Assembly: GCA_031272455.1 (NCBI GenBank)
Contig: JAISTS010000048.1
Span: 1-35,416 of the forward strand
Origin: Tannerella sp.
GTDB lineage: Bacteria; Bacteroidota; Bacteroidia; Bacteroidales; Tannerellaceae
Reading direction: 5' to 3'
Length of the DNA: 35,416 nucleotides
The notes under the pieces are model-generated. The model worked only from the letters and a program-made list of their open reading frames with translations. It did no database searches and had not been told where the DNA came from. Positions 14,289 through 35,405 of this stretch are shown piece after piece (within the stretch, counting starts at the first letter, position 1; every line of letters starts with the position of its first letter). Position numbers and translations under genes: made by a program.

Positions 14289-14296
14289 TATCTTTG
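14289..14296 (+). promoter_or_regulatory. -7 element of the first propeller gene
   Basis: TATCTTTG, the same octamer as before parA and the candidate small RNA, lies 20 bases upstream of the ATG at 14317. The expected -33 box would lie inside the third inverted repeat and is not TTTG, which would suit a promoter needing an activator. Confidence 0.55.
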
Positions 14297-14316: not shown

Positions 14317-15651
14317 ATGTTACGAACACTCAGAATTACACTTACGACTGCATTGCTGGCATTGGCAACAACCGCAGTCAATGCTCAGGACTGGACAATG
14401 TTTCTCGGTCCCGACCGCAACAGCAAATCGCCCCAGAAAGGGCTTTTAAGAACATGGGCAGACGGCGAGCCTGCGGCGTTATGGTCTGTCGGTTTGGGCA
14501 GAGGCTATGGCGGTCCTGTAGTCAAAAACGGCAAAGTCTATCTGCTCGACCGTGACGATGAAAAGGGCGATATAATGCGCTGCTTCGACCTTGCAAGCGG
14601 CGATGAACTATGGCAGTTCGCATACGATTCACCCGGCGAAGTTCCTTTTCCCGGCTCGCGAAGCGTCCCTGCGGTCGATGACAGGTATGTCTATTCCTGC
14701 GGTACCTACGGCGACCTGTATTGTTTCGACCTGAACAGCCATCAGCCCGTTTGGAAAAAGAACATCTGGACTGACTTCGGCGGCGGCGAAAGGCTGCCCG
14801 TATGGGCTATCTCGCAATGTCCAACCATTTATGGCGAACTGCTTATCATCTCGTCGCAAGCGCCTGACGCCGGAGTAGTGGCTTACAACCGCAATACCGG
14901 CGAGGTGGTCTGGAAAACGCCAAATCTCGGCAACGAAAACTATGCCAGCCCGACAGTGCTTAAAATTCACGGCGAAGACCAGGTCGTGATGGTCAATTCG
15001 TCCACCAATCCGTTTGCCAACCCCAACGCGCCTGCAACCAAAGGCAAGGTGGTGGGCTTAGACCCCATGACCGGCGCCGAACTGTGGCGATACGACAACT
15101 GGGAATGTCATATTACCTGCGCCCCGCCCACTCTTGCGGATGACAACAAGTTGCTGATAGTAGGCGGTTACGAGCGGGGAGCGACTTTGATACAGATAAA
15201 TAAAGCGGCAGACGGCAAGTTCAGCGTTGCCGAACTGTTCACTACCACCGATTTTGGCGACCAGACCAAATCGGCGCTCTACCACAACGGCTGTTTCTAC
15301 GCTATGTATCGCACCAATCAGAAACGCGACGGCATGGTGTGCATGGATATCAACGGCAAATTGCTGTGGAAAACCGGCAACAATCCTAATTTCGACCGTG
15401 GCAGTATGATTCTTGCCGACGGTTTAATCCTCGCCACCGACGGTATGAAAACCCTCTACCTGATAGAGCCGGACGCGACCGGCTTCAAGCCCATTTCAAA
15501 AGCAAACGTACTGTCGGAAGGCGGCGCTTCGACCGGCGGTATGTCGGCGATGGGCGGCAACACCCAGAACTGGGCGGCAATAGCCCTTGCCGACGGCAAA
15601 CTATTAGTTCGCGACCAGGCTAAAATGGTTTGCGTAAAGGTCGTGAAATGA
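14317..15651 (+). CDS. Secreted PQQ-like beta-propeller protein (propeller 1)
   Basis: A 444-residue secreted protein: signal peptide 1-24 (cleavage after VNAQ), then a PQQ-like (BamB/quinoprotein-type) propeller. The opening MFLGPDRNSKSPQKGLL is the entry motif of this family. Blade motifs of the type x-D-x-x-[TS]G-x-x-x-W recur, for example CFDLASGDELW, AYNRNTGEVVW and GLDPMTGAELW. No haem motif and no quinoprotein alcohol dehydrogenase active site is recognisable, so binding of real PQQ is doubtful. It resembles propellers 2 and 3 downstream (same entry motif and length), so they are probably paralogues. It is separated from them by the GH51 gene. It may bind protein partners or act as a redox or sensory subunit of the locus. 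Confidence 0.88.
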   Translation: MLRTLRITLTTALLALATTAVNAQDWTMFLGPDRNSKSPQKGLLRTWADGEPAALWSVGLGRGYGGPVVKNGKVYLLDRDDEKGDIMRCFDLASGDELWQFAYDSPGEVPFPGSRSVPAVDDRYVYSCGTYGDLYCFDLNSHQPVWKKNIWTDFGGGERLPVWAISQCPTIYGELLIISSQAPDAGVVAYNRNTGEVVWKTPNLGNENYASPTVLKIHGEDQVVMVNSSTNPFANPNAPATKGKVVGLDPMTGAELWRYDNWECHITCAPPTLADDNKLLIVGGYERGATLIQINKAADGKFSVAELFTTTDFGDQTKSALYHNGCFYAMYRTNQKRDGMVCMDINGKLLWKTGNNPNFDRGSMILADGLILATDGMKTLYLIEPDATGFKPISKANVLSEGGASTGGMSAMGGNTQNWAAIALADGKLLVRDQAKMVCVKVVK

Positions 15652-15724
15652 ACGTACCGCAACGTTTTTGATTGCCCTGAAACAAAAATTTATGCTTTCA
15701 TGCTGCTTATTTTAAAACTTTATG

Positions 15725-15732
15725 TAAATTTG
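15725..15732 (+). promoter_or_regulatory. -7 element of the GH51 gene
   Basis: TAAATTTG fits TAnnTTTG, 21 bases upstream of ATG 15754. This position rules out the frame opening at 15700 as the start. A weak hairpin (AACGT/ACGTT, 15651-15666, followed by Ts) just after the preceding stop might be a poor terminator. Confidence 0.55.
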
Positions 15733-15753
15733 CGGCTGAAATGTATCAAAAAA

Positions 15754-17286: not shown

Positions 17287-17340
17287 AAAACGTAAGGAAA
17301 TGATACTAAATACAATAATTGCTTATTAAAACGGACGAAT

Positions 17341-18549
17341 ATGAAGAATATTTTTGTACTTTTATTGCTTTGCGCAAGTTGCACGCAGGTCGCTATTAAC
17401 GAAAATTCGCAGTGGCGCGGCGCCGACCGTTCGGGGTTTTACAAGGAGACGGGCTTACTGAAAGAGTGGCCAGCTGACGGACCGCAAATGCTGTGGAGCA
17501 TCGACGGGCTGGGCGAAGGCTATACCTCTGTCGCCGCCGCCAACGACAAGATCTACATTACCGGTATGATCGACAGCACCGGCTATCTGTATATCATTGA
17601 TACGCAGGGCAATCTGCTGCAAAAGAAGGAGTATGGCTTTGAGTGGAACACCAACTTCAACGGGGCGCGCTCGACGGTTTGCGTCAACGACGGCAGGCTG
17701 TACATCTTTTCGGGTCGGGGCGTGCTCTACTGCTTCGACGAACCGACGCTCGACCTGCTCTGGTCGAAGGATATACAAACGGACTTCGACGGCACAAACC
17801 TGATGTTCGGGATGACGGAATCGCCTCTTATCGTGGGCGAGACGCTATACCTGACCCCCGGCGGCAAGGAAAACAATATGGTGGCGCTCAACAAAGCTAC
17901 GGGCGAACTGATATGGTCGTCAACGGGCATCGGCAAGCCATCAACCTACTGTTCGCCGCAGTATATCAACGATTTGAAGACCCCGTTAGTGGCTACTTGC
18001 ATCGACAGCAGCCTTGTGGTGTTCAACGCCTCGACGGGCGAGAAGCTGTGGGATGTCGAGCAAAAAAGCCCGCACGGACACAATCCCAACACTCCGATAT
18101 ATGAGAAAGGGCTACTGTTCTGCGTGTCGGGCGGCGGCTTCGGCTCAGTGCAATACCGCCTCAATCAGGACGGTACGATAGCCGAAAAGACATGGACCAA
18201 CGAGATGGACAGCAAGCACGGAGCGGCGGTCAAAGTGGGCGATTACGTTTACGGCTCGGGCGAGAGAAACCGCTACTGGTACTGCATCGACTGGCGCACG
18301 GGCGAGACGAAATATAAGGATAACGCCATAGGCGTGGGCAATATCATCGCCGCCGACGGGATGCTGTATTGTTACAGCGACAAGGGCGAACTCGCTCTCG
18401 TTGAGGCTACTCCCGAAAAGTTCAATATCAAGGGGCAGATGAAAATCACGCTCGGCACCAACCAGCACTGGGCGCATCCCGTGATATATAAGGGCGTGCT
18501 CTACCTGCGTCACGGCGATACCTTGATGGCTTTCGATATTAAGGGATAA
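17341..18549 (+). CDS. PQQ-like beta-propeller lipoprotein (propeller 2)
   Basis: A 402-residue lipoprotein: short signal with lipobox LCASC and the lipidated Cys at residue 14. The mature part starts with the family entry motif WRGADRSGFYKETGLL and is followed by repeated blades such as ALNKATGELIW, VFNASTGEKLW and CIDWRTGET. It is the most planctomycete/verrucomicrobia-like of the propellers in wording of the entry motif (family knowledge from memory). It probably faces the periplasm, or the cell surface if exported by the lipoprotein pathway. It begins the tightly packed part of the locus; no promoter is obvious in the 54 bases before it, so it may be transcribed from the GH51 promoter or from a promoter I cannot see. 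Confidence 0.88.
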   Translation: MKNIFVLLLLCASCTQVAINENSQWRGADRSGFYKETGLLKEWPADGPQMLWSIDGLGEGYTSVAAANDKIYITGMIDSTGYLYIIDTQGNLLQKKEYGFEWNTNFNGARSTVCVNDGRLYIFSGRGVLYCFDEPTLDLLWSKDIQTDFDGTNLMFGMTESPLIVGETLYLTPGGKENNMVALNKATGELIWSSTGIGKPSTYCSPQYINDLKTPLVATCIDSSLVVFNASTGEKLWDVEQKSPHGHNPNTPIYEKGLLFCVSGGGFGSVQYRLNQDGTIAEKTWTNEMDSKHGAAVKVGDYVYGSGERNRYWYCIDWRTGETKYKDNAIGVGNIIAADGMLYCYSDKGELALVEATPEKFNIKGQMKITLGTNQHWAHPVIYKGVLYLRHGDTLMAFDIKG

Positions 18550-18567
18550 AATTAAAATAACAGGATT

Positions 18568-19824
18568 ATGTCAAAAAGATTATTGTTTATTGCGTGCTTT
18601 CTGCTGCCGTTGTTGGTTGAGGCGCAGGACTGGGCACAGTGGGGCGGCGCAAACCGCGATGCCGTCGTCAAAGCAACCAATCTCAATTTGGACTGGACGG
18701 ATTCCAAGCCTGCGCTGTTGTGGACATTCCGTCAAGCCGGCGCTGGCTATTCAAGCCCGTCGATATCCGGCACAACGCTATATTGCCAGGGCGCTGCCAA
18801 CGGCAAGGACTTTGCTTTCGCCATTGACACCAAAACGGGCGCTTTGAAGTGGAAACAGGATCTTGGCGCCGAGTATGTTCAGGATCGCGGCAACGGACCT
18901 CGCGGCGCAGTAACCGTTGATGGCGACAAGCTGTATCTTATTCGCGGCGGCGGTCAGATACACTGCATCCAAGCAGCCGACGGCAAGATGCTGTGGCAAA
19001 AGGATTTCACCTCAGATTTTGGCGGCGAGTTGCAGTCGCGCTGGGGTTTCAGCGAATCGCCTTTGGTTGACGGCAACCTCGTCGTCTGCACCCCCGGCGG
19101 CAACAGCGGCACACTGGCGGCGCTCGACAAAAACACGGGCGCAGTCGTCTGGCGTTCAAAGGAATGGACTGATATTGCCGGATATTCGTCGCCCATAGTG
19201 GCTGTCGTTGACGGCGTGAAGCAGATCATCCAGATAGCCAAAAGCGGCGTGGCGGGAGTGTCGGTCAACGACGGCAAACTGCTGTGGAAAGCCGATGTAG
19301 CAGGCAACAAGACGGCGGTCATCCCTTCCCCGATCTATTCGGATAAGGATCATATCGTATTCGTAACGTCGGGCTATGGCGCAGGTTGTGCGGGAGTGAA
19401 ACTCACCAAGTCGGGCGATGTGTTCAAAGCCGAAACGCTTTACGAGAACAAAAACATGACGAACCATCACGGCGGCGTCGTGCTTGTAGGCGATAATATC
19501 TATGGCTTTTCGGACACGGGCGGCTGGACCTGCCAGAGCCTGAAATCGGGCGAGGTGGTATGGAAAGAACGTCCGCGCGAGCCGGGCAAAGGCGCCGTTA
19601 TCTGCGTCAACAATCGCCTACTCTGCCTGAGCGAACGGACGGGAACGATTACCCTTGCCTCTGCCACAACAGATGGATGGAAAGAGTCGGGTAATTTGGA
19701 AATCCCCGAAAGGACGAAAATTGAGACAACGGATAATATGGTATGGACGCATCCGGTCGTCGCCGACAATAAACTTTATATGCGCGACCACGACTTGCTG
19801 TTCTGCTTCGATTTGAAAAAATAA
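18568..19824 (+). CDS. Secreted PQQ-like beta-propeller protein (propeller 3)
   Basis: A 418-residue protein with a cleavable signal peptide (1-19, ending VEAQ). It has the entry motif WAQWGGANRDAVVK and blades AIDTKTGALKW, ALDKNTGAVVW, SVNDGKLLW and SLKSGEVVW. It has no lipobox, unlike propeller 2, which it follows after 18 bases. It shares more wording with propeller 2 than with propellers 4-6 (FGFSESPLV/WGFSESPLV region, TPGG motif, HHGG/KHGA segment), so these two look like a recent duplication with different anchoring. The likely role is an envelope component of the same complex. Confidence 0.87.
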   Translation: MSKRLLFIACFLLPLLVEAQDWAQWGGANRDAVVKATNLNLDWTDSKPALLWTFRQAGAGYSSPSISGTTLYCQGAANGKDFAFAIDTKTGALKWKQDLGAEYVQDRGNGPRGAVTVDGDKLYLIRGGGQIHCIQAADGKMLWQKDFTSDFGGELQSRWGFSESPLVDGNLVVCTPGGNSGTLAALDKNTGAVVWRSKEWTDIAGYSSPIVAVVDGVKQIIQIAKSGVAGVSVNDGKLLWKADVAGNKTAVIPSPIYSDKDHIVFVTSGYGAGCAGVKLTKSGDVFKAETLYENKNMTNHHGGVVLVGDNIYGFSDTGGWTCQSLKSGEVVWKERPREPGKGAVICVNNRLLCLSERTGTITLASATTDGWKESGNLEIPERTKIETTDNMVWTHPVVADNKLYMRDHDLLFCFDLKK

Positions 19825-19851
19825 ACGTTCGCGAATAGAACGTCAACAGGC

Positions 19852-21270
19852 ATGCGTAAAAAACTTACCATAATAACAGCCTCTGTAATAGTCGTTTACA
19901 CGGCAATTATTGTGGCGTGGCATTTATATGCGCCGTCGCGACAGTTTGCGTTGCAGGTTCCGGGCGCCGATAACCGTCCGCCCGAATCAGCCCGTAAAGC
20001 CGACGATGTGCGTATAGGCGAGTTTTTTATGCGATACGAAACTGAGACAAGCTCATTGACCGGCAAATGGACGTGCTTTCGGGGTAACGATATGTCGAAC
20101 ATCATCCATACGAGCGACAAGATAGCTTACAGCGGCGACGATTATGCCGAAATCTGGGGAGTAACTACGGGCGAAGGGCATGCTGCGCCGGTGATATACA
20201 ACGGAATGGTCTATTTTCTGGATTACGACGAGACGCTCAGTTCGGATATGCTGCGCTGTTTTTCGTTGGAAACGGGCAAGGAGCAGTGGCGACGCTGGTA
20301 TCGCGTCCCGATGAAGCGTAATCACGGCTTTTCGCGTACGGTGCCGGTCGTGTCCGACGATTATATCATCACCCTCGGACCGCAGGGGCATTTGATGTGC
20401 TGTCATCCAGTGACGGGCGACTTGAAATGGACGCACGATCTGCAAAGCGAATACCAAACCGAAGTGCCGTTCTGGTACACCGGTCAGTGTCCGCGCGTTG
20501 ACGACGGGATACTTATTGTCGCTCCGGCAGGCGACGAAACGCTGCTGGCGGGCATCGACTGCAATACCGGCGAGACGGTCTGGCAAACGCCCAACACGCC
20601 GAAGTTCAAGATGTCGCACTCGTCTGTAACGCCAATGACCATTCACGGCAAGAAGACCTACGTCTATGCCGGCATCGGCGGCGTTTGCGGCATATCCGCC
20701 GAACCGTCCGACCGCGGCACGCTGTTATGGCATCAGACCAAATGGCAGCCTTCGGTCATCGCGCCTTCGCCACTGCATCTGTCGGGAGGTAACATCTTCC
20801 TCGTCGCGGGATACGGCGCTGGTGGAGCGTTGATGCGGGTGGATCTCGCAGGCAATAAATGGACGGCGGTGATTGTCGAACAGTATAAGGCAAACGAAGG
20901 CTTGTCGAGCGAACAGCAGACGCCAATACTTTATAATAACTTCATTTATACTGTATTACCGAAGGACGGCGGCAGTCAGCGCGGCAAATTGGTGGTCTAT
21001 GCGCCGACGGATCTGCACAATCCCGTCTGGTCGTCGGGCGCCGATGAAAGGTTTGGTCTGGGACCGTACGTCATCATCAACGACCGCATTTTTGTGCTAA
21101 AAGAAGACGGCGAGCTGTATGTTTATAAAATCGAGAACTCGCGCAGCCTGCTATTGGAGCGCAAACAGCGTATCATGGATGGCGTTGACGCCTGGGGATC
21201 GATGGCTTATGCCGACGGTATGCTCCTCGTGCGCGATGCCAATAACGTTAAATGTTTAAAGATAGGATAA
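19852..21270 (+). CDS. Membrane-anchored PQQ-like beta-propeller protein (propeller 4)
   Basis: A 472-residue protein with one N-terminal membrane anchor (about residues 5-26, no cleavage motif) and a ~40-residue linker before the propeller. Blades include CFSLETGKEQW, CCHPVTGDLKW and GIDCNTGETVW. The neighbouring cysteines (residues 183-184) lie in a blade and not in the adjacent-disulfide context of quinoprotein alcohol dehydrogenases. The propeller faces the periplasm. The gene lies 27 bases after propeller 3 and 17 bases before the Tat-type NHL propeller. Confidence 0.86.
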   Translation: MRKKLTIITASVIVVYTAIIVAWHLYAPSRQFALQVPGADNRPPESARKADDVRIGEFFMRYETETSSLTGKWTCFRGNDMSNIIHTSDKIAYSGDDYAEIWGVTTGEGHAAPVIYNGMVYFLDYDETLSSDMLRCFSLETGKEQWRRWYRVPMKRNHGFSRTVPVVSDDYIITLGPQGHLMCCHPVTGDLKWTHDLQSEYQTEVPFWYTGQCPRVDDGILIVAPAGDETLLAGIDCNTGETVWQTPNTPKFKMSHSSVTPMTIHGKKTYVYAGIGGVCGISAEPSDRGTLLWHQTKWQPSVIAPSPLHLSGGNIFLVAGYGAGGALMRVDLAGNKWTAVIVEQYKANEGLSSEQQTPILYNNFIYTVLPKDGGSQRGKLVVYAPTDLHNPVWSSGADERFGLGPYVIINDRIFVLKEDGELYVYKIENSRSLLLERKQRIMDGVDAWGSMAYADGMLLVRDANNVKCLKIG

Positions 21271-21287
21271 CAAAATAATAAAGCAAA

Positions 21288-22274
21288 ATGGAAAATATCT
21301 CACGTAAAAAGTTTCTGCGTACATTCGGTACGTTGCTTGCAGGCGGAGGTGTTGCCGGTGTAACGGGAGTGGTTGCAAGCAAGGGATTTGCACCCGTCAG
21401 CCACGCCGAAGCTGAGATAGACGAAGCCGCTGCATACATATCGCCTTACCGCCGGATCGCCGATTTTGAAGTCGATGGCGCTATCGAAGCCTTCGACGAA
21501 TACGGGGGTAAACTGTATGTGGCGACTACCGGAATTATCTCGACGACAGACAGTTACGGCAAGTTGCTGTCGTCGTTTGCCTCGACAGATGTCCCTGTTC
21601 GCGATATGGAGGTTGATGAGGCGGGAATTTGGCTCTTGCATCCCAAAGCCGTCAGCCTGTATTCGTTCGACGGCGTTCGCGTTCGCGGATGGGAGGCTTG
21701 CAGCGAGTTGTCGGACTACTGCGCTTTTGCGCTTGCGGGCGATTTTGTCTATGTTACCGATCGGGAACAAAAGAATATCGTCAAATATACCCGCGAGGGC
21801 GGCTTGGTAAAGTTTATCGACAGTCCTAACCGTTTTATCATCCCCAGCCGCACTTTCGGCATCAGTTATGCCGCCGGAATGCTCTACTGTTCCAATTCGG
21901 GCAGGCATCAGATTGAGAAATTCACGCTCGACGGCGAATATGCGGGCTGTTTTGGGGCGCCGGGAAGCAAGCCGGGTGCGTTTTGCGGTTGCTGCAATCC
22001 CGTTCATCTCACCTGCACCGAGACGGGCGAAATCATCACTTCGGAAAAAGGCATCCCGCGCATCAGTTGTTACAGCGCCGATGGCGTCTTTCGCAGTATC
22101 CTTCTCGACGGCAAAGCCTTGGGCGGCGGCTTCACGGCTTACGAAGCCAAAGTGTCGGGCGACAGGATTTTTGCGGCGGGCAAAAACAAGGTAACTTATT
22201 ACAGATACGACTCCCAGCTTGCGGCAGTTGGCGCATGCGCCGATTGCGGGGTCGATTGCGGACTCAGGACTTAA
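21288..22274 (+). CDS. Tat-type NHL-like beta-propeller with CGCCNPVH motif
   Basis: A 328-residue protein. The N-terminus has a Tat-like signal, SRKKFLRTFG (residues 5-14), with the twin-arginine pair replaced by Arg-Lys, then a hydrophobic stretch (15-31). The rest reads as an NHL-type six-bladed propeller rather than a PQQ-like one. A striking CGCCNPVH (C233, C235, C236, H240) and a C-terminal CADCGVDCG (C317, C320, C324) are good candidates for binding a metal or an Fe-S centre, or for a disulfide. From memory, NHL proteins with a GCCNP motif occur next to NosR-like Fe-S genes in Planctomycetes and Verrucomicrobia too. Export through Tat would let it fold with its cofactor first. Function: inferred partner or electron carrier of the two genes that follow. 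Confidence 0.78.
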   Translation: MENISRKKFLRTFGTLLAGGGVAGVTGVVASKGFAPVSHAEAEIDEAAAYISPYRRIADFEVDGAIEAFDEYGGKLYVATTGIISTTDSYGKLLSSFASTDVPVRDMEVDEAGIWLLHPKAVSLYSFDGVRVRGWEACSELSDYCAFALAGDFVYVTDREQKNIVKYTREGGLVKFIDSPNRFIIPSRTFGISYAAGMLYCSNSGRHQIEKFTLDGEYAGCFGAPGSKPGAFCGCCNPVHLTCTETGEIITSEKGIPRISCYSADGVFRSILLDGKALGGGFTAYEAKVSGDRIFAAGKNKVTYYRYDSQLAAVGACADCGVDCGLRT

Positions 22275-22285
22275 CCATATATAAT

Positions 22286-22840
22286 ATGTATAGTAAAATA
22301 GACAGGAAGCGTTTTTTGAAACTGTGCGGCTCGGCGGTGGCGGGAGCGGCGGTGGTGTCGCTGACAGGACTTGCCGCCAAGCGGATGTACGGGCGCAAGG
22401 GCGATGTGTTTTGGCAGATCGACCCGTCGAAATGCACTTTCTGCGGACGCTGCGCCACCGACTGCGTGCTGACCGTCTCGGCTGTAAGATGTATCCACGC
22501 CCATCGCGTATGCGGCTATTGCGACCTGTGCGGAGGCTATTACCGCACTAACGTCAAAGACCTGAACACTGCCGCCGAGAATATGATGTGTCCGACGGGC
22601 GCCATCGAACGCAAGTATGTCGAAGACCCGTATTTTGAATACACCATCGACGAGAGCCTGTGCAACGGCTGCGGCAAATGCGCCAAGGGCTGCAACTCCT
22701 TTGGCAACGGCTCGCTCTACCTGCAAGTCAAGCAGGAGCTGTGCAAGAACTGCAACGAATGTAAAATCTCGAAAGTCTGTCCGTCGGGCGCACTTACGCG
22801 CGTTACGGCAGATCGGGTTTATATGTTGAAAGACGGATGA
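22286..22840 (+). CDS. Tat-type polyferredoxin, about four [4Fe-4S] clusters
   Basis: A 184-residue Fe-S protein. The signal DRKRFLKLCG (residues 6-15) is a Tat motif with Arg-Lys instead of Arg-Arg, followed by a hydrophobic stretch (16-31). Cysteine sets are C50-C53-C56-C60, C69/C76-C79-C82 with C102, C126-C129-C132-C136, and C153-C156-C159-C165. This resembles the FdhB/HybA/NrfC-type electron-transfer subunits with four cubanes, without their usual C-terminal anchor. It should lie on the outer face of the inner membrane. It starts 11 bases after the NHL gene and is followed by the NosR-like membrane protein, its likely electron partner. The ATG at 22286 is chosen because it begins the signal; a longer upstream extension has shadow composition. 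Confidence 0.88.
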   Translation: MYSKIDRKRFLKLCGSAVAGAAVVSLTGLAAKRMYGRKGDVFWQIDPSKCTFCGRCATDCVLTVSAVRCIHAHRVCGYCDLCGGYYRTNVKDLNTAAENMMCPTGAIERKYVEDPYFEYTIDESLCNGCGKCAKGCNSFGNGSLYLQVKQELCKNCNECKISKVCPSGALTRVTADRVYMLKDG

Positions 22841-22845
22841 TGGGG

Positions 22846-22873
22846 AATTAAAAATTAAGAATTGAAAATTAAG
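22846..22873 (+). repeat. Two abutting 14-bp AT-rich repeats before the NosR-like gene
   Basis: AATTAAAAATTAAG (22846-22859) and AATTGAAAATTAAG (22860-22873) match at 13 of 14 positions and end one base before the next ATG (22875). They fill most of the 34-base spacer. Similar AATTAAAAATTAAG repeats are common between Bacteroidetes genes. Confidence 0.7.
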
Positions 22874-22874
22874 A

Positions 22875-25941: not shown

Positions 25942-25958
25942 AACGCAATATTAACCGT

Positions 25959-28397: not shown

Positions 28398-29349
28398 AGC
28401 AATAGAAGCGCACGAGGGCGAAACCCTGATTGAAGTGGCGCGCCGAGCGGGGATTGATATTCCGTCGCTGTGTTATGCACGCGACGCCAAACACAAATCG
28501 TCGTGTATGGTTTGCGCCGTAAAGGATTGTAAATCAGGAAATATAATGCCTTCGTGCACAACTTTGCCGACGGAGGGTATGACGATCGACACCGAAAGCG
28601 AAGAGGTGAAAAAGACGCGCATCCTGTCGCTCGAACTGCTGCTGAGCGACCATCGCGCTGACTGCGAAGCGCCCTGTTCGATGGTATGCCCCGCCGGATT
28701 GGATATTGAGCGGATGTTGGGATTTTACGACGCCGGAGATTATGCTGCGGCGGTCGCGCTTATCGCGTCGGTTTTTGCGCTTCCGGAAATTGCCTGCGAC
28801 GACTGCAAAGCGCCATGCGAAAAAGCCTGCCGACGCGGAACGCTCGATGAGGCTGTTTCTATTCGCGAGATAATCAGGGAAATAGTTCTCAATAACGGCG
28901 AAAAGCCCATTGCCGCAAAGCATTTTGAAAACACGGCAAAGGACAAAAACCTCTTTCAATCGCGCTTGGGAAGATTCACGGACGCGGAAAAAGACGGTCT
29001 GACGGCAGGCGTCGATACCCGTTCGCGCTGCCTGCATTGCGCCTGTTCGGGACGGCAAAAATGCCGTTTGCGGACATTCTCGACGGCGGGAGGCATCAAA
29101 CGTCCGCGCTATCAGGCATCGTCGGTTTTACAGTTGACTAAAACGCATATCAACAGCAACTTATGGTTCGAGCCGGCAAAATGTATCCGTTGCGGACTGT
29201 GCGTTTACAACAGCGATAACGGCTTCACTTTCAAGGGCAGAGGGTTCAATATGGAAGTGATATTGCCGGACGAAAATAAAGCCAACGTCAGCGACAGGCT
29301 TGCGGAGTTGTGTCCTACGGGGGCGATTTATTTACAGAGTAGCAAGTAG
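28375..29349 (+). CDS. NuoG/HydA-N-terminus-like Fe-S protein without catalytic domain
   Basis: A 324-residue cytoplasmic polyferredoxin. An N-terminal plant-type [2Fe-2S] domain has C33, C44, C47 and C61. It is followed by a GltD-like N-terminal Fe-S segment (C97, C101, C105 in CEAPCSMVCPAGLDI, and C141-C144-C148-C152 in the CxxPCE.ACRRG segment). A C-terminal part has CIRCGLC and CPTGAI. NuoG and hydrogenase HydA share such an electron-entry half, but both then carry a catalytic domain. No H-cluster or molybdopterin domain is present here or next door. The start overlaps the fusion gene by 23 bases, so the two are tightly coupled. The likely role is to take electrons from the NADH module and hand them to a membrane or soluble acceptor. 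Confidence 0.88.
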   Translation: MTITINNKAIEAHEGETLIEVARRAGIDIPSLCYARDAKHKSSCMVCAVKDCKSGNIMPSCTTLPTEGMTIDTESEEVKKTRILSLELLLSDHRADCEAPCSMVCPAGLDIERMLGFYDAGDYAAAVALIASVFALPEIACDDCKAPCEKACRRGTLDEAVSIREIIREIVLNNGEKPIAAKHFENTAKDKNLFQSRLGRFTDAEKDGLTAGVDTRSRCLHCACSGRQKCRLRTFSTAGGIKRPRYQASSVLQLTKTHINSNLWFEPAKCIRCGLCVYNSDNGFTFKGRGFNMEVILPDENKANVSDRLAELCPTGAIYLQSSK

Positions 29350-29370
29350 TTAGTAGTAAGTAGATAGTAG
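29338..29370 (+). repeat. AGTAG-type short repeat
   Basis: Seven near-copies of a TAG/AGTAG unit run across the stop codon of the Fe-S gene and into the spacer. The sequence is 33 bases, almost only A, G and T. It resembles the AGTAGTTAGTAG-like simple repeats seen between Bacteroidetes genes and may vary in copy number. Confidence 0.6.
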
Positions 29371-29378
29371 AAAATTAT

Positions 29379-30515
29379 ATGAGACGGTTAGGGATTTGTT
29401 TGTTGGTTTTTATTGGGATGTCCTGCGGGAAAACGGGCGGCGGTTCGGCGGGTAGCGGCGACGATTGGTGCATTTTTCGCGGCGACCCGGGATTGAGCGG
29501 CTACTCGAAAATGAAATTGCCCGACAATCTGCAATTGCTTTGGACTCACAAAAGCGATTCGCGGACATCGTCGTCGCCCATAATTTACAATGGCACAGTC
29601 TATTGGATCGACAAACGCGGGAAAATTTTCGGGGTGAACACAGCAGGCGAACTGACTTTTACTTACGATTTCGCAACTGCGGTCGAGGCAAGTCCAATGA
29701 TTTCGGATTCAACGCTTTACATTGGTCGAATCGACGGATTTATGAGCGCCCTGTCATTAACATCAAAAGACACTTTGTGGAATTTTGAAACTTGGGGACA
29801 AATTTCGGCGTCGCCCAATATCGGCGTTTTTGAAGGCAGGGAAGCCGTAATTTTCGGAAGCTACGACAACTTTCTTTATTGTTTGGACAAAAAGACAGGA
29901 GAATTGATAAATAGTTTTGAATCTGGATATTATATCAACGGCGCTGTGTCGGTTACGGATAATTATTTCGTTTCGGGCGGATGTGACGCCTGGCTGAAAG
30001 TGATCGACGGCGAAACTGGAACAACCACCGACTCGCTTGAATTAGAAACGTATATCCCCGCTTCGCCCGCCATTGTCGGAAACGACTGCTACATCGCCGA
30101 TCATTCGGGAAATATATACGCTATGACGCTGAATAAAGGGAAAATAAGCGATTTCAGGAAGATGATTGCGGCAACCGACGATAGCGGAACATTCGTATCC
30201 GTGCCTGCGGTCTCTTCAACAACGCTTTATATCATTTCGGACGACCGACATCTGTACGCTATCGACCGTAAAACGGGCGAAATCCGCTGGAAATACCTGC
30301 AAAAAGGCGGTTCGGGCGAAAGTTCGCCGCTTGTTTGCCGCGACAAAGTCATCTCCTGCACAAAGTCGGGCGTCGTTTCGGCGCTCTCGGCTGACAGAGG
30401 CGAGCTGCTTACAGAATACGATACCGGAGAACAAATCACCGCCTCGCCCGCAGTTTCCGGCGGTCGTTTCTATATCCTTACTGCTAAGGGGACGCTGTTT
30501 TGTTTTGGCGAATAA
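29379..30515 (+). CDS. PQQ-like beta-propeller lipoprotein (propeller 6)
   Basis: A 378-residue lipoprotein: signal with lipobox GMSC (lipidated Cys at residue 16), a Gly/Ser-rich stretch, and then a PQQ-like propeller. Blades read GVNTAGELTF, CLDKKTGELINS, VIDGETGTTTDS and AIDRKTGEIRW; several have lost the terminal Trp, so this copy is more diverged and closer to BamB than propellers 1-3. BamB itself is part of the outer-membrane protein assembly machine, but no BamA or other Bam gene is near, so I do not assign that role. It sits between the cytoplasmic Fe-S module (29-base gap) and the ABC transporter (14-base gap). Some lines of this gene are visibly AT-richer than the rest. Confidence 0.85.
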   Translation: MRRLGICLLVFIGMSCGKTGGGSAGSGDDWCIFRGDPGLSGYSKMKLPDNLQLLWTHKSDSRTSSSPIIYNGTVYWIDKRGKIFGVNTAGELTFTYDFATAVEASPMISDSTLYIGRIDGFMSALSLTSKDTLWNFETWGQISASPNIGVFEGREAVIFGSYDNFLYCLDKKTGELINSFESGYYINGAVSVTDNYFVSGGCDAWLKVIDGETGTTTDSLELETYIPASPAIVGNDCYIADHSGNIYAMTLNKGKISDFRKMIAATDDSGTFVSVPAVSSTTLYIISDDRHLYAIDRKTGEIRWKYLQKGGSGESSPLVCRDKVISCTKSGVVSALSADRGELLTEYDTGEQITASPAVSGGRFYILTAKGTLFCFGE

Positions 30516-30529
30516 TAAAAACTAAAAAT

Positions 30530-31204
30530 ATGATACAACTCACTGACATAAAAAAATCTTTCCCTGACGGCGAAAACAAACGCAACGAAGTATTGCGAGG
30601 GGTGAATATGACCGTTGCCAAAGGCGAATTTGTCGCCATTACCGGCGAATCGGGATCGGGTAAAACTACGCTGCTGAATATTCTCGGCACGATAATTGTA
30701 CCCGACAGCGGGGCATATATGCTTGATAACAAGACGATTTTCGGCTCAGACAGTAAACCTGTCGATACTGCTGACATCCGCAACCGTCTGATTGGATTTG
30801 TGTTTCAGGAACACCGCCTGATGCCGCAATACACCATCCTGCAAAATATCCTGTTGCCGACGCTTGCCGGTCAGGTGAAAACGACACCGGAACAGGTACA
30901 ATATGCCGAATACCTGATGGATATGACAGAGATCTCGGTGTTGGCTAATCGCCTTCCTGCGACAGTTTCGGGCGGGGAAGCAAGCCGCGCAGCGCTTTGC
31001 AGAGCGCTAATAATGAAGCCGTTAGTCCTGCTTGCCGACGAGCCGACCGGTCAGCTTGACAGTCGCAACGCACATAACACAGTGGCATTGCTGAAAAAAG
31101 TCAGTCGCGAACTTGGAGCTACTGTCCTGATGGTCAGCCATTCGCATGAGACGACAGCCGAAGCGGAACGTATCTTAACCCTCAAAGACGGTTTATTGTC
31201 ATGA
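30530..31204 (+). CDS. ABC transporter ATPase, LolD/MacB type
   Basis: A 224-residue nucleotide-binding subunit with a complete set of motifs: Walker A GESGSGKT (39-46), Q-loop in FVFQEHRLMPQ, signature VSGGE (near 147-151), Walker B LLADEPTG (about 168-175), and the H-loop in MVSHSHET. The sequence class is that of LolD, MacB N-terminal domain and FtsE, which power FtsX-fold permeases that move substances from the inner membrane without a classical channel. The ATG at 30530 is chosen because MIQL begins the family; a frame opening at 30500 would add ten unlikely residues. The stop overlaps the permease start by 4 bases. Confidence 0.92.
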   Translation: MIQLTDIKKSFPDGENKRNEVLRGVNMTVAKGEFVAITGESGSGKTTLLNILGTIIVPDSGAYMLDNKTIFGSDSKPVDTADIRNRLIGFVFQEHRLMPQYTILQNILLPTLAGQVKTTPEQVQYAEYLMDMTEISVLANRLPATVSGGEASRAALCRALIMKPLVLLADEPTGQLDSRNAHNTVALLKKVSRELGATVLMVSHSHETTAEAERILTLKDGLLS

Positions 31205-34140
31205 ATTTCAATAAGTTAATAAGATCGAATATAAAGCACCACAGTCGCTATTACAGACTGATCATGGCGGCTACGGTGATCATGGTCGCCGTCATCACCG
31301 GCAGCCTGATAATCGGCGATTCCGTGCGTAACACGCTTATAAACAGGGTTAAACAGCGACTTGGCGACACCGAAACAATCGTATTTTCAAAAAACGCATT
31401 CTTTTCAGACAGTCTTGCGCAAACATCTGTTTTTCAAGGCAATGCACGAGGAATGCTTCTTACCGACGGCTTCATTTCGGATAACGGCAAATTGATTCCT
31501 GTGATGGTTTGGGGCGTGGATGATGTGCCATTCGGCAGCGCCCGGATCAACAGAACGCTGGCTGATGAACTAACGCTTTCGGATCGAACAGCTGCAAATA
31601 AAGATCTGATACTCAGGCTTCCTGCAACTGGAATGGTGCCATCCGGTTCGCTGTTCGTAACCGACAACTACACAACATCCATTCGCCTCGCCTGCGCAGG
31701 AATTATCGGTACGGACGAGGGAGGCAACATCAGCCTCAAAAACGAACAAATCATCCCCTGCAATATCTTCGTAAATCGCCTCGAATTGGCGTCAACACTG
31801 AAAATCGAAGGGAAAATCAATCTCATACTGACGCAGACAATAATCAGTGAAGATGATATAGAAACGGTCTGGAAGCCCTCATTATCAGGAATTAAAATCA
31901 AAAATAATGAATTGCTGTCCGACAGGGTTTTCCTTCAAAACGATCTCGTCGCGACTGTTTGCCACGACAACAGCGACGTAAACCGCGTGTTTTCTTATAT
32001 GGCTAATAGTCTGACAGTCATCGGAAAGAGCGACACGATCCCCTATTCGTTTATCACAGCAGCCGATAGTTACAGGGGGCAAAAACTTGAAAATAATGAC
32101 GTTATACTGTCTGATTATTCCGCAACGAGATTAACGGCAAAGGTCGGCGACAGCATCAGGATAACGTTTTTCGTTTCCGGCGACCTTAAAACGCTGCACG
32201 AAGAGTCTGTCAATCTGCGTGTTGTCGGCATAGCGCCGATAGGTGAACTGTGTGCCGACCCAACGCTAAGCGCCGACTTTCCCGGACTGTCGGATGTGGA
32301 AAACTGCACCGATTGGGACAGCGATTTGCCGATTGACATGTCGCGCATCACGAAAGAGGACGAAGATTATTGGGATCAATACCGCTCAACGCCCAAAGCG
32401 ATAGTGGCTTACAGCGCCGTAGCGACGAAATGGAGCAATGCCTACGGCTGCGCCACTTCGCTGCGTTTCACACAAGATCCTGATTTAAGCGGACTGAAAC
32501 CGTCAATGACCGGCATTCAAGTCATCCATCCGCGGGAAGCAGGTCTGACGGCAGCGCAAAACAGCATCGACTTCACCTCGCTTTTCCTGTCGCTCGGATT
32601 TTTCATCCTGATCGCTGCCGCGCTGCTAATGCTCGTGCCGCTCTCGGAGATGATTTTCGTCCGCCGAGAGGAACTCTCGCTGCTGTCGGCAACGGGATAC
32701 GGTAAACATAAGATAATAAGTATGTTATGGAGAGAGTCCGTCCTGACTGTCATCGTCGCGTCAATCCTCGGCATCATCGCAGGAATTGCATATACATTGC
32801 TGATAATAACGCTGTTAAATACACTGTGGCAAGGAGCTGTTCATACCGTCGGTTTCACGTTCCATACCAATCTAACTACGCTTATCAGCGGATTGGTTGC
32901 AGGCATAGCTATTGCGCTGATAATATTGAGATTATCCATTGTTAAAGCGGTTAAAAAGATAGATAAACCGCAAAAAATCACGAATCGCGTGCATAAACAG
33001 GCAAGCAATTTCAGTATTAATCAGCTGATAATAGCCGATTTACGCTCAAACTCAAAACGTGCATGGCTGTCGTTTGCGGCGCTGGCGTCGGGTGTGCTGA
33101 TCGTCTTTGCCGTGGGGCTGAACCGCCCCGGCTATACCGACAGTTCGCAGTTGCAGAGCGCGACCGGCGGCTATGCGTTGTGGTGCGAAACGAGCATCCC
33201 CGTCTATCACAACCTCGCGACAACGGAAGGACGTAAAAAACTGTCACTTAGTGATCTACCAGCAAGTACGGAAATACTGCAACTCTTACGTTTCAGTGCC
33301 GATGATGCCAGCTGCTTGAACCTCAATAAAGTAACGCAACCGACAGTGTTGGGCGTCGATATGCAGGCATTGAAATCGGGCAGCCTCAAAGTGAGCCAAA
33401 GCATTTATCCTGAGGATGTCTCGCCGTTCGATATGCTGTGTTCGGAAGCGCATGCCGTTTATCCTGTGATGGTTGACGAGACCGTCCTCCTTTGGGGCTT
33501 GCAGATGAAACTCGGCGACACGTTGAGTTACGAAGCAAGCAACGGGCGAACGGTCAGCCTTCTGCTTGCCGCCACGCTTCATAACTCCATGTTTCAAGGC
33601 AATTTGTTGATGGATAGAAGTTTATTCAAAGACATCTGGAACGAAATCACCGGAAGCGAAATAGCGCTAATCAAAACATCCGGTTCACAGACGGAAATTA
33701 ACGAAGTCAAAACGCTGACGGAAAGGGCATTGAGCGAATATGGCGTGCGCGTCATGCCGACAGTGCAACGACTGCGGGAATTTAATTCCGTTACAGACAC
33801 CTATTTGACTATCTTTCTGGTTCTTGGCGGTTTCGGATTACTCATCGGCATTGCCGGTTTCATCATCGTTGTGCGCAAAGACCTTGCCTCGCGGAGCGCG
33901 CAGATAGCGATGATGAAGGCGCTCGGTTTCAGCGCAGAAAAACTCAAACAGCTGCTTGTAAAAGAAAGTCGTATTGTGCCCCTCGCGGCAATAGCAACCG
34001 GATTTGCCTTGTCGCTCATTGCTGTCATCGGCGGGCTGTCGGGCGTTACTCCGGAGATATGGCTTATGGCGCTGATATTCTTGCTGTTACTTGTTTTCGG
34101 AGTATTGTATTTCATTAATAGAGAAGTTGATAAGATATGA
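31201..34140 (+). CDS. Large FtsX/MacB-type ABC permease
   Basis: A 979-residue integral membrane permease with about eight membrane segments (near 19-38, 456-475, 513-540, 561-578, 622-640, 868-890, 925-945 and 953-972). The long periplasmic part after the first helix (about 40-455) resembles a MacB/LolC periplasmic core. A second periplasmic domain (about 641-867) follows. This makes a fused double FtsX unit on one chain, which fits a mechanotransmitter-type exporter of lipoproteins or lipid-linked molecules. It lacks the ATPase, which is encoded just upstream (4-base overlap). The glycosyltransferase starts at the stop (4-base overlap). Substrate unknown. Confidence 0.88.
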   Translation: MNFNKLIRSNIKHHSRYYRLIMAATVIMVAVITGSLIIGDSVRNTLINRVKQRLGDTETIVFSKNAFFSDSLAQTSVFQGNARGMLLTDGFISDNGKLIPVMVWGVDDVPFGSARINRTLADELTLSDRTAANKDLILRLPATGMVPSGSLFVTDNYTTSIRLACAGIIGTDEGGNISLKNEQIIPCNIFVNRLELASTLKIEGKINLILTQTIISEDDIETVWKPSLSGIKIKNNELLSDRVFLQNDLVATVCHDNSDVNRVFSYMANSLTVIGKSDTIPYSFITAADSYRGQKLENNDVILSDYSATRLTAKVGDSIRITFFVSGDLKTLHEESVNLRVVGIAPIGELCADPTLSADFPGLSDVENCTDWDSDLPIDMSRITKEDEDYWDQYRSTPKAIVAYSAVATKWSNAYGCATSLRFTQDPDLSGLKPSMTGIQVIHPREAGLTAAQNSIDFTSLFLSLGFFILIAAALLMLVPLSEMIFVRREELSLLSATGYGKHKIISMLWRESVLTVIVASILGIIAGIAYTLLIITLLNTLWQGAVHTVGFTFHTNLTTLISGLVAGIAIALIILRLSIVKAVKKIDKPQKITNRVHKQASNFSINQLIIADLRSNSKRAWLSFAALASGVLIVFAVGLNRPGYTDSSQLQSATGGYALWCETSIPVYHNLATTEGRKKLSLSDLPASTEILQLLRFSADDASCLNLNKVTQPTVLGVDMQALKSGSLKVSQSIYPEDVSPFDMLCSEAHAVYPVMVDETVLLWGLQMKLGDTLSYEASNGRTVSLLLAATLHNSMFQGNLLMDRSLFKDIWNEITGSEIALIKTSGSQTEINEVKTLTERALSEYGVRVMPTVQRLREFNSVTDTYLTIFLVLGGFGLLIGIAGFIIVVRKDLASRSAQIAMMKALGFSAEKLKQLLVKESRIVPLAAIATGFALSLIAVIGGLSGVTPEIWLMALIFLLLLVFGVLYFINREVDKI

Positions 34141-35405
34141 AGATATTGTTTATAGTTCCCGGGTCGGGCGACCCTTTCTATTGCGGCAATTGTTTTCGCG
34201 ACAACCTGCAAGCCAATGCTTTACGCAAAGCCGGGCACGAGGTCGTCGTTATGCCGCTTTATCTCCCGCTGAAAGATGAATCGTTTCGCGGCGATACGCC
34301 CTTGTTTTTCCCTGCCGTTTCGCTCTTTGTCGAGCGTAAATACTTCAAGTCGAAAACGATGCCCGTGTGGATGGAAAAACTGCTCAATTCCGACTGGTCG
34401 CTGAATATGGCTGCCTCGTTTTCCGGATCTACCTCGTCCGAAGGGCTGGAAGATATGACGCTGTCGATGATCAACGGCGACGACCGCATTTTCCTAAGAC
34501 ATGTCGCGACGATGATCGATTGGATCAAAAACCACGAACGCCCCGACCTGATACACCTGTCAAGCAGCCTCATCATCGGCATTGCCAAACTGATCAAACA
34601 GCACATCAATATACCTGTGGTCTGTTCGCTGCAAGACGAAGAAGTGTGGATCGACGCACTTGGAGATTTTGCCGACACGGCTTGGCAGAGCATCTGGGAC
34701 AATGCGAACTCCATCGACTGCTTTATCGCGTCCAGCGATTATTACCGGCAGTCGGTCTTGCGGCGCACATCGCAAATCAAGTGCATCGAAGTGGTGTATC
34801 CGGGAGTGAACCGGACGAAATATTTCTCCGAACATTATCCTTCCGAACCTGTCGTGGGCTTCTTTTATCGCATGAACCGGCTTAACGGGCTTCATATCCT
34901 CGCCGAAGCCTTTGTCAAACTGAAAGCCGAAGGACAGATCCCGAAACTCCGCTTGCGTATCGGCGGCGGCTATTCTGATACCGACAAAAAATTCCTGAAA
35001 AAGGTGCGTGCCGTGCTGGCGCCTTACGCCGCTGATGTGGACTGGATTGATGCTTACAGTTTGAGCGAACATGTTGATTTTTACCGAAATGTGTCGGTCG
35101 TTTGCGTGCCGATCACTTTTGACGAAGCCGTCGGGCTGTATGTCTGCGAGGCTTTTGCCGCAGGTCGTCCGGTAGTTGAACCTGCCACGGGTTCGTTTCC
35201 GGAAATCGTGGCTGACGGCGGCGTGCTTTATCAGCATAATGATAGCGACAGTCTTGCCGCCGCTCTACGTGAGATGCTGACAGCGAAAGGACTATGGACG
35301 AAATGCCGCGACAATGCCCTCAGACTGTCTCAGGAGCGATACGACGCTTCTGTTTTGGCGGATAATTTATTGCGAATTTATAATATGATCCTTACAGCAC
35401 AGTAA
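34137..35405 (+). CDS. Family 4 glycosyltransferase with N-terminal YCGNC motif
   Basis: A 422-residue retaining GT-B glycosyltransferase. The C-terminal half has the GT4 EX7E pair in DEAVGLYVCEAF (E330 and E338), the usual nucleotide-sugar binding region, and the GxPVV-type segment that follows. The N-terminus opens with a Rossmann strand, then FYCGNCFRDN (C16, C19), a two-cysteine motif that I recall from GT4 proteins encoded near ABC/FtsX genes in several phyla. There is no signal peptide or membrane segment, so the protein is cytosolic or membrane-associated. It is coupled to the permease gene by ATGA overlap, suggesting that the transferred sugar is attached to something this ABC unit exports. 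The gene ends 11 bases before the window edge. Confidence 0.9.
   Translation: MKILFIVPGSGDPFYCGNCFRDNLQANALRKAGHEVVVMPLYLPLKDESFRGDTPLFFPAVSLFVERKYFKSKTMPVWMEKLLNSDWSLNMAASFSGSTSSEGLEDMTLSMINGDDRIFLRHVATMIDWIKNHERPDLIHLSSSLIIGIAKLIKQHINIPVVCSLQDEEVWIDALGDFADTAWQSIWDNANSIDCFIASSDYYRQSVLRRTSQIKCIEVVYPGVNRTKYFSEHYPSEPVVGFFYRMNRLNGLHILAEAFVKLKAEGQIPKLRLRIGGGYSDTDKKFLKKVRAVLAPYAADVDWIDAYSLSEHVDFYRNVSVVCVPITFDEAVGLYVCEAFAAGRPVVEPATGSFPEIVADGGVLYQHNDSDSLAAALREMLTAKGLWTKCRDNALRLSQERYDASVLADNLLRIYNMILTAQ

What the first reader, a model, noticed from the sequence alone, without database searches (positions are those of the whole stretch)
14317..35405. Undescribed-looking envelope electron-transfer locus built from seven beta-propellers and a NADH-Fe-S module
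Six PQQ-like propellers, one NHL-type propeller, a Tat-type polyferredoxin, a NosR-like membrane protein, a NuoEF-like fusion, a catalytic-domain-free NuoG-N protein, an ABC/FtsX exporter and a GT4 are in one direction, with short gaps or overlaps from 17341 onward. I know of no named system with this set. A transmembrane electron-export pathway feeding propeller partners is a reasonable model, but the terminal acceptor and the purpose are unknown.
Basis: partly seen in the sequence, partly recalled or inferred. Interest (0 to 1): 0.85.

Follow-up and report, generated by a model that had tools for sequence, protein, structure and literature searches.

The report
Bacteroidota envelope electron-relay gene cluster
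A block of thirteen bacterial genes, kept in much the same order across many Bacteroidota, looks like a wire that carries electrons between NADH inside the cell and a set of propeller-shaped proteins in the cell envelope, and in a part of its relatives it sits beside genes for making ring-shaped terpene lipids.

Summary
Thirteen same-strand genes (17341-35405, gaps -23 to +34 nt) form a conserved cluster. In 105 related loci (some duplicated) the core genes stand near FER wherever enough contig is held: NHL 92 of 93, NOSR 86 of 87, NUOEF 67 of 71, in much the same order. The GH51-type gene (15700) is outside; PQQ1 (14317) is at most accessory.

Three refinements. (1) NUOEF is not a complex I piece but a BfuC-BfuB fusion: ligands of the electron-bifurcating HydBC/Bfu core are kept in 64-68 of 68 sequences. 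NUOGN is its BfuA-like partner without the catalytic module. (2) FER plus NOSR form a Tat-type, four-[4Fe-4S], NapGH-like relay without the FMN of NosR; no propeller reaches a PQQ-enzyme cut-off. (3) In part of the relatives a radical SAM / DUF116-polyprenyl synthase / squalene-cyclase-like cassette lies upstream. The cyclase is in 6 of 149 order genomes, all six FER-positive.

Best model: a NADH (+ ferredoxin)-linked transmembrane relay serving envelope propellers, perhaps for lipid modification and export. Direction, acceptor and substrate are unproven; the cyclase was not found in the window genome. My ten paper searches found no description.

The parts
13300..14175 (+). MBL-fold hydrolase with signal peptide (possible accessory)
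   Evidence: Lactamase_B; AidB-lactonase-like, below cut-off. Homologues of 44-46% identity sit inside the cluster, after NUOEF, in 7 of 25 same-family loci; 0 of 105 other loci. Bacteroidota-type TAnnTTTG at 13251 (motif recalled).
14317..15651 (+). PQQ1, secreted PQQ_2 propeller (possible accessory)
   Evidence: PF13360. 71% homologue upstream of PQQ2 in L178 and L179; 58% homologue before the terpenoid cassette in L210. TAnnTTTG at 14289.
17341..18549 (+). PQQ2, lipoprotein-like PQQ_2 propeller
   Evidence: PF13360; N-terminal ASCTQ, lipobox-like by eye; 1-4 copies of the PQQ1/2/3 type upstream of FER in 57 of 61 loci with more than 8.5 kb before FER.
18568..19824 (+). PQQ3, secreted PQQ_2 propeller
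   Evidence: PF13360 E 1.5e-35; relatives often have further copies of the PQQ2/3 type.
19852..21270 (+). PQQ4, membrane-anchored propeller, most conserved of the five propeller types measured
21288..22274 (+). NHL propeller with GCCNP motif; N-terminal RKKFL and C-terminal CxxCxxxC
   Evidence: GCCNP in the window, 73 of 73 named, 22 of 22 order and 26 of 28 family copies over 280 aa; C-terminal Cys motif in the window, G023, G137 and 17 of 28 family copies, 0 of 20 other order and 0 of 73 named copies; fold.
22286..22840 (+). FER, Tat-type polyferredoxin, four [4Fe-4S] sites
   Evidence: 16 invariant Cys in 22 sequences; [RK]R-x-F-type N-terminus in 100 of 102 orthologues, while the window copy reads RKRFLK and misses that pattern; TatC in own genome and 25 of 26 FER genomes of the order set.
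22875..24164 (+). NOSR, polytopic NapH/NosR-like Fe-S membrane protein without FMN domain
   Evidence: Fer4_5 and Fer4 domains; two CxxxCP and two CxxCxxCxxxCP motifs in 90-91 of 91; eight hydrophobic stretches, the first perhaps a signal.
24157..25941 (+). PQQ5, membrane-anchored PQQ_2 propeller
   Evidence: PF13360; three N-terminal hydrophobic stretches; present 79 of 81.
25959..28397 (+). NUOEF, BfuC-BfuB (HydC-HydB) fusion
   Evidence: NuoE, NuoF, NADH_4Fe-4S and Fer4 domains; best-scoring solved chains include NfnB 9n5u, HydB 7q4v, NiFe-HydB 7t2r; Bfu ligands conserved in 64-68 of 68 sequences.
28375..29349 (+). NUOGN, BfuA-like Fe-S protein, catalytic module absent
   Evidence: Fer2_4, Fer4_20, Fer4_15; residues 3-169 and 177-318 match N- and C-terminal Fe-S parts of 9bov_A; 59 of 67 called copies are at least 480 aa and the two tested keep an FAD domain.
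29379..30515 (+). PQQ6, lipoprotein-like propeller
   Evidence: Beta-prop_ACSF4 and PQQ_2; N-terminal MSCGK by eye; 14 of 15 where enough contig.
30530..31204 (+). ABC ATPase (LolD/MacB-like)
   Evidence: ABC_tran; LolD 184.7 bits, below cut-off; 12 of 14.
31201..34140 (+). FtsX-type permease
   Evidence: PF02687; 8 of 11.
34137..35405 (+). GT4 glycosyltransferase
   Evidence: Glycos_transf_1; 12 of 14; before ABC in most relatives that hold both, after FTSX in the window, G023 and L183.

Best explanation
The locus encodes a transmembrane electron relay between the cytoplasmic NADH (and probably ferredoxin) pool and a membrane-anchored assembly of beta-propellers in the periplasm. NUOEF is a fused electron-bifurcating Bfu/HydBC core and NUOGN its BfuA-like partner, without the usual catalytic or NADP(H) module, so that its electrons must go to another protein. 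The inferred partner is NOSR, a NapH/NosR-like [4Fe-4S] membrane protein. NOSR passes electrons to FER, a Tat-type four-cluster ferredoxin, and FER to the anchored NHL, PQQ4 and PQQ5 propellers. The ABC/FtsX pair, GT4 and lipoprotein-like propellers suggest that the work done outside concerns building or exporting an envelope glycoconjugate or lipid; the recurring squalene-cyclase-like cassette makes an isoprenoid lipid the leading candidate. Shown here: gene order, Fe-S ligand conservation, Tat-type signals, the gap in NUOGN, co-occurrence with the cyclase. Inferred: who touches whom, the direction (I favour export, by confurcation of NADH and ferredoxin electrons), and the substrate.
For: Gene set kept in 105 loci (layouts) and 25 same-family loci. 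Bfu ligands in 68 NUOEF sequences, including C642, C/T680, H729, C734, C739, which match the B2 site described in PMC9304861 by spacing and by alignment with 9n5u, 9bov and 7q4v chains. A fused NuoEF-type frame occurs in 20 of the 20 cluster genomes searched (of 26 known in the order set), split in two frames in G128, and including G145, G085 and G070, where it is not beside FER. L090 NUOGN aligns to 9bov_A 3-287 then 440-671, skipping about 150 residues. FER Tat-type motif 100 of 102, TatC. CYC1: 6 of 149 order genomes, all FER+ (Fisher p 1.7e-5, genomes not independent); 22 of 98 family genomes, 19 FER+. Of the other three, G584 runs through CYC1-PQQ2-PQQ4 into the start of an NHL gene at the contig edge, G615 ends inside PQQ4 after CYC1-PQQ2-PQQ2, and G545 is a weak hit cut by the contig edge. 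0 of 395 phylum genomes have CYC1 (the tool warns that an empty answer without a known positive shows nothing).
Against: No physical contact or activity is shown. Twenty of 26 FER+ order genomes lack CYC1, as does the window genome (85.5% complete), so the terpenoid cannot be an obligatory substrate. In G016 CYC1 stands without the other cassette genes in the 19 kb held (L212). NapH-like proteins can take electrons from quinol (PMC8238504), so NOSR need not be fed by NUOGN. G136 has NHL, FER and NOSR with a PhnD/TAXI-like protein and no Bfu gene on its 5.4 kb contig. GT4, ABC and FtsX could be passengers, and their counts are small.
Confidence: 0.55

Rival explanations
1. Electron import: the propellers (or a partner) oxidise a periplasmic substrate and electrons run inward through FER and NOSR to NUOGN/NUOEF, which bifurcates them to NAD+ and ferredoxin.
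For: Bfu enzymes are described as reversible and as coupling donors such as H2, formate or aldehydes to NAD+ and ferredoxin (PMC9304861). NapH-like clusters with an ethanol oxidase are reported in 172 genomes (PMC8238504). The propellers belong to the PQQ-like superfamily.
Against: The PQQ-dehydrogenase model stays far below its cut-off for the six propellers and no PqqE match reaches its cut-off in 149 genomes (no positive control among its 14 control genomes). The best structural matches of PQQ4 are YxaL, BamB and tetrathionate hydrolase. A donor near -390 mV or lower would be needed (recalled energetics).
Confidence: 0.2
2. Quinol-fed relay: NOSR-FER is a NapGH-type menaquinol dehydrogenase serving the propellers, and NUOEF-NUOGN is a separate soluble NADH:ferredoxin enzyme that merely shares the operon.
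For: NapH is called a putative quinone-binding subunit in PMC8238504. NapG/NapH-like similarity. NOSR-FER-NHL occurs without visible Bfu genes on the short G136 contig.
Against: NOSR has an extra C-terminal ferredoxin site (C404-C414, 90 of 91), and the fused NuoEF is present in all 20 cluster genomes searched even when not beside FER.
Confidence: 0.15
3. Envelope biogenesis or sensing locus: the propellers are BamB-like scaffold proteins, and redox chemistry only keeps thiols such as those of NHL GCCNP reduced.
For: BamB-like fold of PQQ4, lipoprotein-like starts of PQQ2 and PQQ6, ABC/FtsX and GT4, vicinal Cys kept in nearly all NHL copies.
Against: 16 Fe-S cysteines in FER, two ferredoxin sites in NOSR and a full Bfu core are a costly way to reduce a disulfide.
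Confidence: 0.1

Closest known systems
Bfu family (HydABC-like electron-bifurcating enzymes; Nfn-Bfu type)
   Same: BfuB and BfuC domains, conserved cluster ligands including the B2 Cys, Cys/Thr, His, Cys, Cys set; BfuA-like NUOGN resembling the Fe-S parts of NfnA-type subunits.
   Different: BfuC and BfuB are fused; the BfuA-like protein lacks about 150 residues (read as the NADP(H) module) in the relative aligned, and in the window also the FAD domain; the neighbours are a membrane relay and propellers, not a named third-substrate enzyme.
NapGH / MauMN ferredoxin relays
   Same: Tat-type four-cluster ferredoxin next to a polytopic Fe-S membrane protein with CxxxCP motifs.
   Different: Scores far below family cut-offs; no nitrate reductase or methylamine dehydrogenase gene among the window proteins scanned; NADH module in the same operon.
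NapH-like flavinylated extracytosolic systems (PMC8238504)
   Same: PF12801 membrane protein; such systems are described as modular, linked to reductases or oxidases outside the cytosol.
   Different: No FMN-binding domain and no ApbE among the window proteins scanned.
Hopanoid (hpn) biosynthesis and export
   Same: In relatives: squalene-cyclase-like protein, radical SAM protein, polyprenyl synthase; glycosyltransferase and exporter in the cluster.
   Different: HpnH and hopene-cyclase models far below cut-off; DUF116 fusion; envelope electron relay; cyclase not found in the window genome.
BamB lipoprotein
   Same: Propeller fold of PQQ4 and weak profile similarity of the six propellers.
   Different: Below BamB cut-off; Fe-S partners; several paralogues in one operon.

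Membership tests
Bfu (HydABC-like bifurcating enzymes) | BfuB and BfuC domain set (NuoF FMN-binding, NADH_4Fe-4S, SLBB, 4Fe-4S; NuoE) | tested here: met
   Complex1_51K, NADH_4Fe-4S, Fer4 and 2Fe-2S_thioredx above Pfam cut-off; SLBB only at 19.4 bits against 27. The match of the paper's InterPro numbers to these names is recalled.
[quoted passage not shown]
   68 sequences: NuoE Cys, C202, C203, C233, C237, C642, H729, C734, C739 68 of 68; C665 64 of 68; the eight C-terminal Cys 67-68 of 68; position 680 Cys or Thr in the 14 rows printed. Site described in PMC9304861 section 6.
Bfu (HydABC-like bifurcating enzymes) | BfuA homologue with [2Fe-2S] and [4Fe-4S] domains in the operon | tested here: met
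   NUOGN.
Bfu (HydABC-like bifurcating enzymes) | Coupled electron bifurcation or confurcation with ferredoxin | not testable with these tools
   Needs enzymology.
NapGH / MauMN | MauM/NapG and NapH/MauN family scores | tested here: not met
   25.1 of 178.85 bits and 52.6 of 213.05 bits.
NosR | Periplasmic FMN-binding domain and NosR equivalog score | tested here: not met
   no FMN_bind match; 60.5 of 1000 bits.
NapH-like flavinylated systems | FMN-binding domain or ApbE gene in the cluster | tested here: not met
   none among the 17 window proteins scanned with Pfam. The rest of the genome was not searched for ApbE.
PQQ-dependent dehydrogenases | Family score of the PQQ dehydrogenase model | tested here: not met
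   TIGR03075 at 24-56 bits against 480 for the six propellers.
PQQ-dependent dehydrogenases | PQQ made by the genome (PqqE) | tested here: inconclusive
   0 of 149 over cut-off, but none of the 14 control genomes was over it either.
BamB | BamB equivalog score | tested here: not met
   33-91 bits against 285.
Complex I | NuoF equivalog score and membrane subunits in the locus | tested here: not met
   444 of 558.65 bits; no Nuo membrane subunit among the 17 window proteins scanned with Pfam.
Hopanoid pathway (cassette in relatives) | HpnH and squalene-hopene cyclase scores | tested here: not met
   43.3 of 225 and 76 of 431 bits. DxDD motif present in 27 of 27 near-full-length cyclases.
LolD | LolD equivalog score of the ABC ATPase | tested here: not met
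   184.7 of 307.75 bits.

The most novel reading that the evidence does not exclude
An anaerobic envelope lipid-redox machine: a bifurcating-type core drives electrons across the inner membrane into a propeller array that chemically modifies a cyclised isoprenoid (made by the linked radical SAM / polyprenyl synthase / squalene-cyclase-like cassette), which is glycosylated by GT4 and exported by the FtsX transporter. It would be a Bfu enzyme whose third substrate lies outside the cytoplasm and a new class of membrane terpenoid in Bacteroidota.
Probability: 0.22. Interest if true: 0.9.

Novelty: new variant of a known kind. Interest (0 to 1): 0.72.

Why it matters
Bfu enzymes are defined by what they couple NADH and ferredoxin to, and for 17 BfuB clades the authors saw no obvious function (PMC9304861). 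This cluster offers an unusual assignment: a membrane relay to envelope propellers. It would give Bacteroidota, including cultured genera such as Draconibacterium, Mariniphaga, Maribellus and Sunxiuqinia, a way to use cytoplasmic reducing power outside the inner membrane without a visible haem or flavinylated protein in the cluster. The tie to a squalene-cyclase-like cassette makes the unknown substrate testable by lipid analysis.

Tried and rejected
Rejected: NUOEF as a stray complex I fragment (Bfu ligand set). GH51 as part of the system (0 of 105 and 0 of 25 loci). A PQQ cofactor as the default. An anti-phage system (no PADLOC match for 7 proteins scanned). A plasmid-borne element (no FER match in PLSDB at E 1e-12). 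Extra ORFs between core genes that I looked at were mostly unrelated by eye (ORF6N-like, GDSL-like, AsnA-like). A search with the divergent G136 FER gave the same 26 genomes and no further G136-type locus.

Limits: one search scored at most the best 8 candidates per genome, so some phylum genomes could be missed; its 395 genomes hold few of the order. One search (CYC1, same set) found nothing, and the tool says that an empty answer without a known positive shows nothing. ORFs were called by my own script, not a gene finder. In one search GT4 was seen in 1 of 25 because most stretches end before it, and other late genes are undercounted for the same reason. Fisher values treat genomes as independent, which they are not; on a tree of 50 rows CYC1 changes state at least 6 times (quick method, with the long branch G136). 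FER-positive genomes without CYC1 are not all incomplete (G587 is 98% complete). Searches compare folds only. FAD-domain loss was tested by domain scan only for the window copy and by length for others. Paper searches found no description of the cluster, but cover open-licence papers only.
Full report
WHAT IS THERE. The window is the whole of contig C94 (35,416 bases) of a Bacteroidales-like genome of 2.75 Mb in 139 contigs, 85.5% complete (the taxon is my reading of the genes and of named relatives). From 17341 to 35405 thirteen genes run in one direction with gaps of -23 to +34 nt: PQQ2, PQQ3, PQQ4, NHL, FER, NOSR, PQQ5, NUOEF, NUOGN, PQQ6, ABC, FTSX, GT4. Domains were checked with Pfam and NCBIfam. 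Upstream, MBL (13300), PQQ1 (14317) and a GH51-type gene (15700) each have a TAnnTTTG motif (recalled Bacteroidota promoter element) just before or near their start, while none lies between 17286 and 17341. Nine such motifs were found in that strand and stretch against about 4 expected, so this is weak evidence.

IT IS A CONSERVED UNIT. FER was found in 26 of 149 genomes of the order (own included), 26 of 98 of the family (own included) and 1 of 395 of the phylum set, the own genome. The weakest order hit, G136, has E 8.8e-28; the next weakest 3.6e-62. Where a locus held enough sequence, core genes were found at PQQ4 78 of 82, NHL 92 of 93, NOSR 86 of 87, PQQ5 79 of 81, NUOEF 67 of 71, NUOGN 61 of 65, PQQ6 14 of 15, GT4 12 of 14, ABC 12 of 14, FTSX 8 of 11 (duplicates and one dropped locus are told under Tried and rejected). 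These counts are of presence; the order is seen in the listings, where exceptions include L099, G128 and G145. Neighbours of the window cluster did not travel: GH51, MBL and HAD 0 of 105, PQQ1 1 of 105. In 25 same-family loci MBL homologues occur 7 times, inside the cluster after NUOEF.

THE NADH SIDE. NUOEF has a NuoE part, a second thioredoxin-like [2Fe-2S] part, the NuoF flavin part and two C-terminal [4Fe-4S] sites. Its best-scoring solved relatives are NfnB (9n5u), HydB-type chains such as 7q4v and NiFe-HydB (7t2r), ahead of complex I subunits. The paper that defines the Bfu family (PMC9304861: abstract, first parts of sections 4, 5 and 6 and passages seen) gives a B2 cluster bound by Cys, Cys-or-Thr, His, Cys, Cys and says that the His is missing from HydB homologues that do not bifurcate. 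The window has C642, C680, H729, C734 and C739, matched by spacing and by alignment with other solved chains, not with the paper's own enzyme. Across 68 sequences the four fixed residues are 68 of 68, and position 680 is Cys or Thr in the 14 printed rows. NUOGN matches the Fe-S parts of NfnA-type BfuA subunits. In relatives it is mostly 480-541 aa: 59 of 67 called copies are at least 480 aa, and some of the short ones lie at the end of a stretch. The two tested carry an FAD domain. The one aligned (L090) skips about 150 residues of 9bov_A; I read these as the NADP(H)-binding module, which is recalled and not tested. The window copy (324 aa) has no FAD domain hit; G023 (323 aa) and 16 of 18 called same-family copies (317-338 aa) are as short. 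A catalytic end thus seems to have been lost in two steps, which fits a redirected electron path. In the window genome this is the only NuoF-type protein found, and no [FeFe]-hydrogenase was found there, against 15 of the 20 cluster genomes searched.

THE TERPENOID LINK. In 15 of 25 same-family stretches and in G023 a squalene-hopene-cyclase-like protein (CYC1) lies upstream of the propellers. Where the stretch reaches further it is preceded by a small cyclase-like protein (CYC2, 12 of 25), a polyprenyl synthase fused to DUF116 (9 of 25) and a radical SAM protein (5 of 25). Motifs are intact: DxDD in 27 of 27 near-full-length CYC1, HDDxxD in 12 of 12 synthases, CxxxCxxC in 7 of 7 radical SAM proteins (motif meanings recalled). 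CYC1 is in 22 of 98 family genomes, 19 of them FER+. Of the other three, G584 runs through PQQ2 and PQQ4 into an NHL start at the contig edge, G615 ends inside PQQ4, and G545 is a weak hit cut by the contig edge. In the order CYC1 is in 6 of 149, all FER+. In G112 and G100 the cassette lies on another contig than FER, so adjacency alone does not explain it; in G016 CYC1 stands without the rest of the cassette. Three named loci, L069 (Mariniphaga sp.), L080 (uncultured Bacteroidia) and L093 (Maribellus sediminis), have a 39-42% CYC1 within one gene of PQQ2. None of 395 phylum genomes matched (with the tool's warning). Against this: 20 of 26 order genomes and 7 of 26 family genomes with FER lack it, among them the window genome and its nearest kin. 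The lipid is therefore at most one use of the machine.

HOW IT PROBABLY WORKS. NADH, perhaps together with reduced ferredoxin, feeds NUOEF; NUOGN hands the electrons to NOSR; FER receives them outside; anchored propellers (PQQ4, NHL, PQQ5) use them or pass them on, with GT4, ABC and FTSX handling an envelope product. Gene content and ligands are shown; contacts, direction and product are inferred. NapH-like relays are described as serving both reductases and oxidases (PMC8238504, passages), so the reverse direction stays open.

NOVELTY. Each module has known kin, and the cluster meets the sequence tests of the Bfu family but not those of the other systems tested. The searches named under Tried and rejected found no paper on the combination. 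PMC11406978 was only searched for terms (0 occurrences); other papers were seen as listings only. I rate it a new variant of a known kind, a Bfu core wired to a NapGH-like relay and propellers, with a real but smaller chance of something categorically new.

Noticed in passing
L190:48-4220 and other same-family loci: Undescribed-looking cassette of radical SAM, DUF116-polyprenyl synthase fusion, CYC2 and a DxDD squalene-cyclase-like protein in Bacteroidales.
   Followed up: partly
L210:3611-4420, also in L211, L215, L218, L219: A 265-269 aa ferredoxin-type protein with an N-terminal CxC stretch lies next to or near the cassette.
   Followed up: partly
G023 and G137 (L028, L027, L214): Genomes of another family whose cluster sits inside the window family's clade next to G550/G566, which suggests horizontal transfer of the locus.
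   Followed up: partly
L051 (G136): Variant with GCCNP-NHL, a Cys-rich PhnD/TAXI-like binding protein, FER and NOSR, and no Bfu gene on the short contig.
   Followed up: partly
11 loci, for example L090:4071-5844: A LytS/LytR-type two-component pair recurs in stretches around the cluster or the cassette.
   Followed up: partly
L041 (G085), after PQQ5: After PQQ5 come DNA-methylase/restriction-like genes, while NUOEF-NUOGN-PQQ6 lie on another contig (L171).
   Followed up: partly
L177, L178, L179, L184, L188, L191, L194, L196: Two NHL genes in a row; in L178 and L179 one copy lacks GCCNP.
   Followed up: no
window 15700-17286: The GH51 ORF's first ATG lies before a TAAATTTG motif at 15725; a later ATG near 15757 may be the true start.
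   Followed up: no
window 21983-22840 and 22271-22726: Long overlapping ORFs in other frames or strands over FER; they look like artefacts.
   Followed up: no
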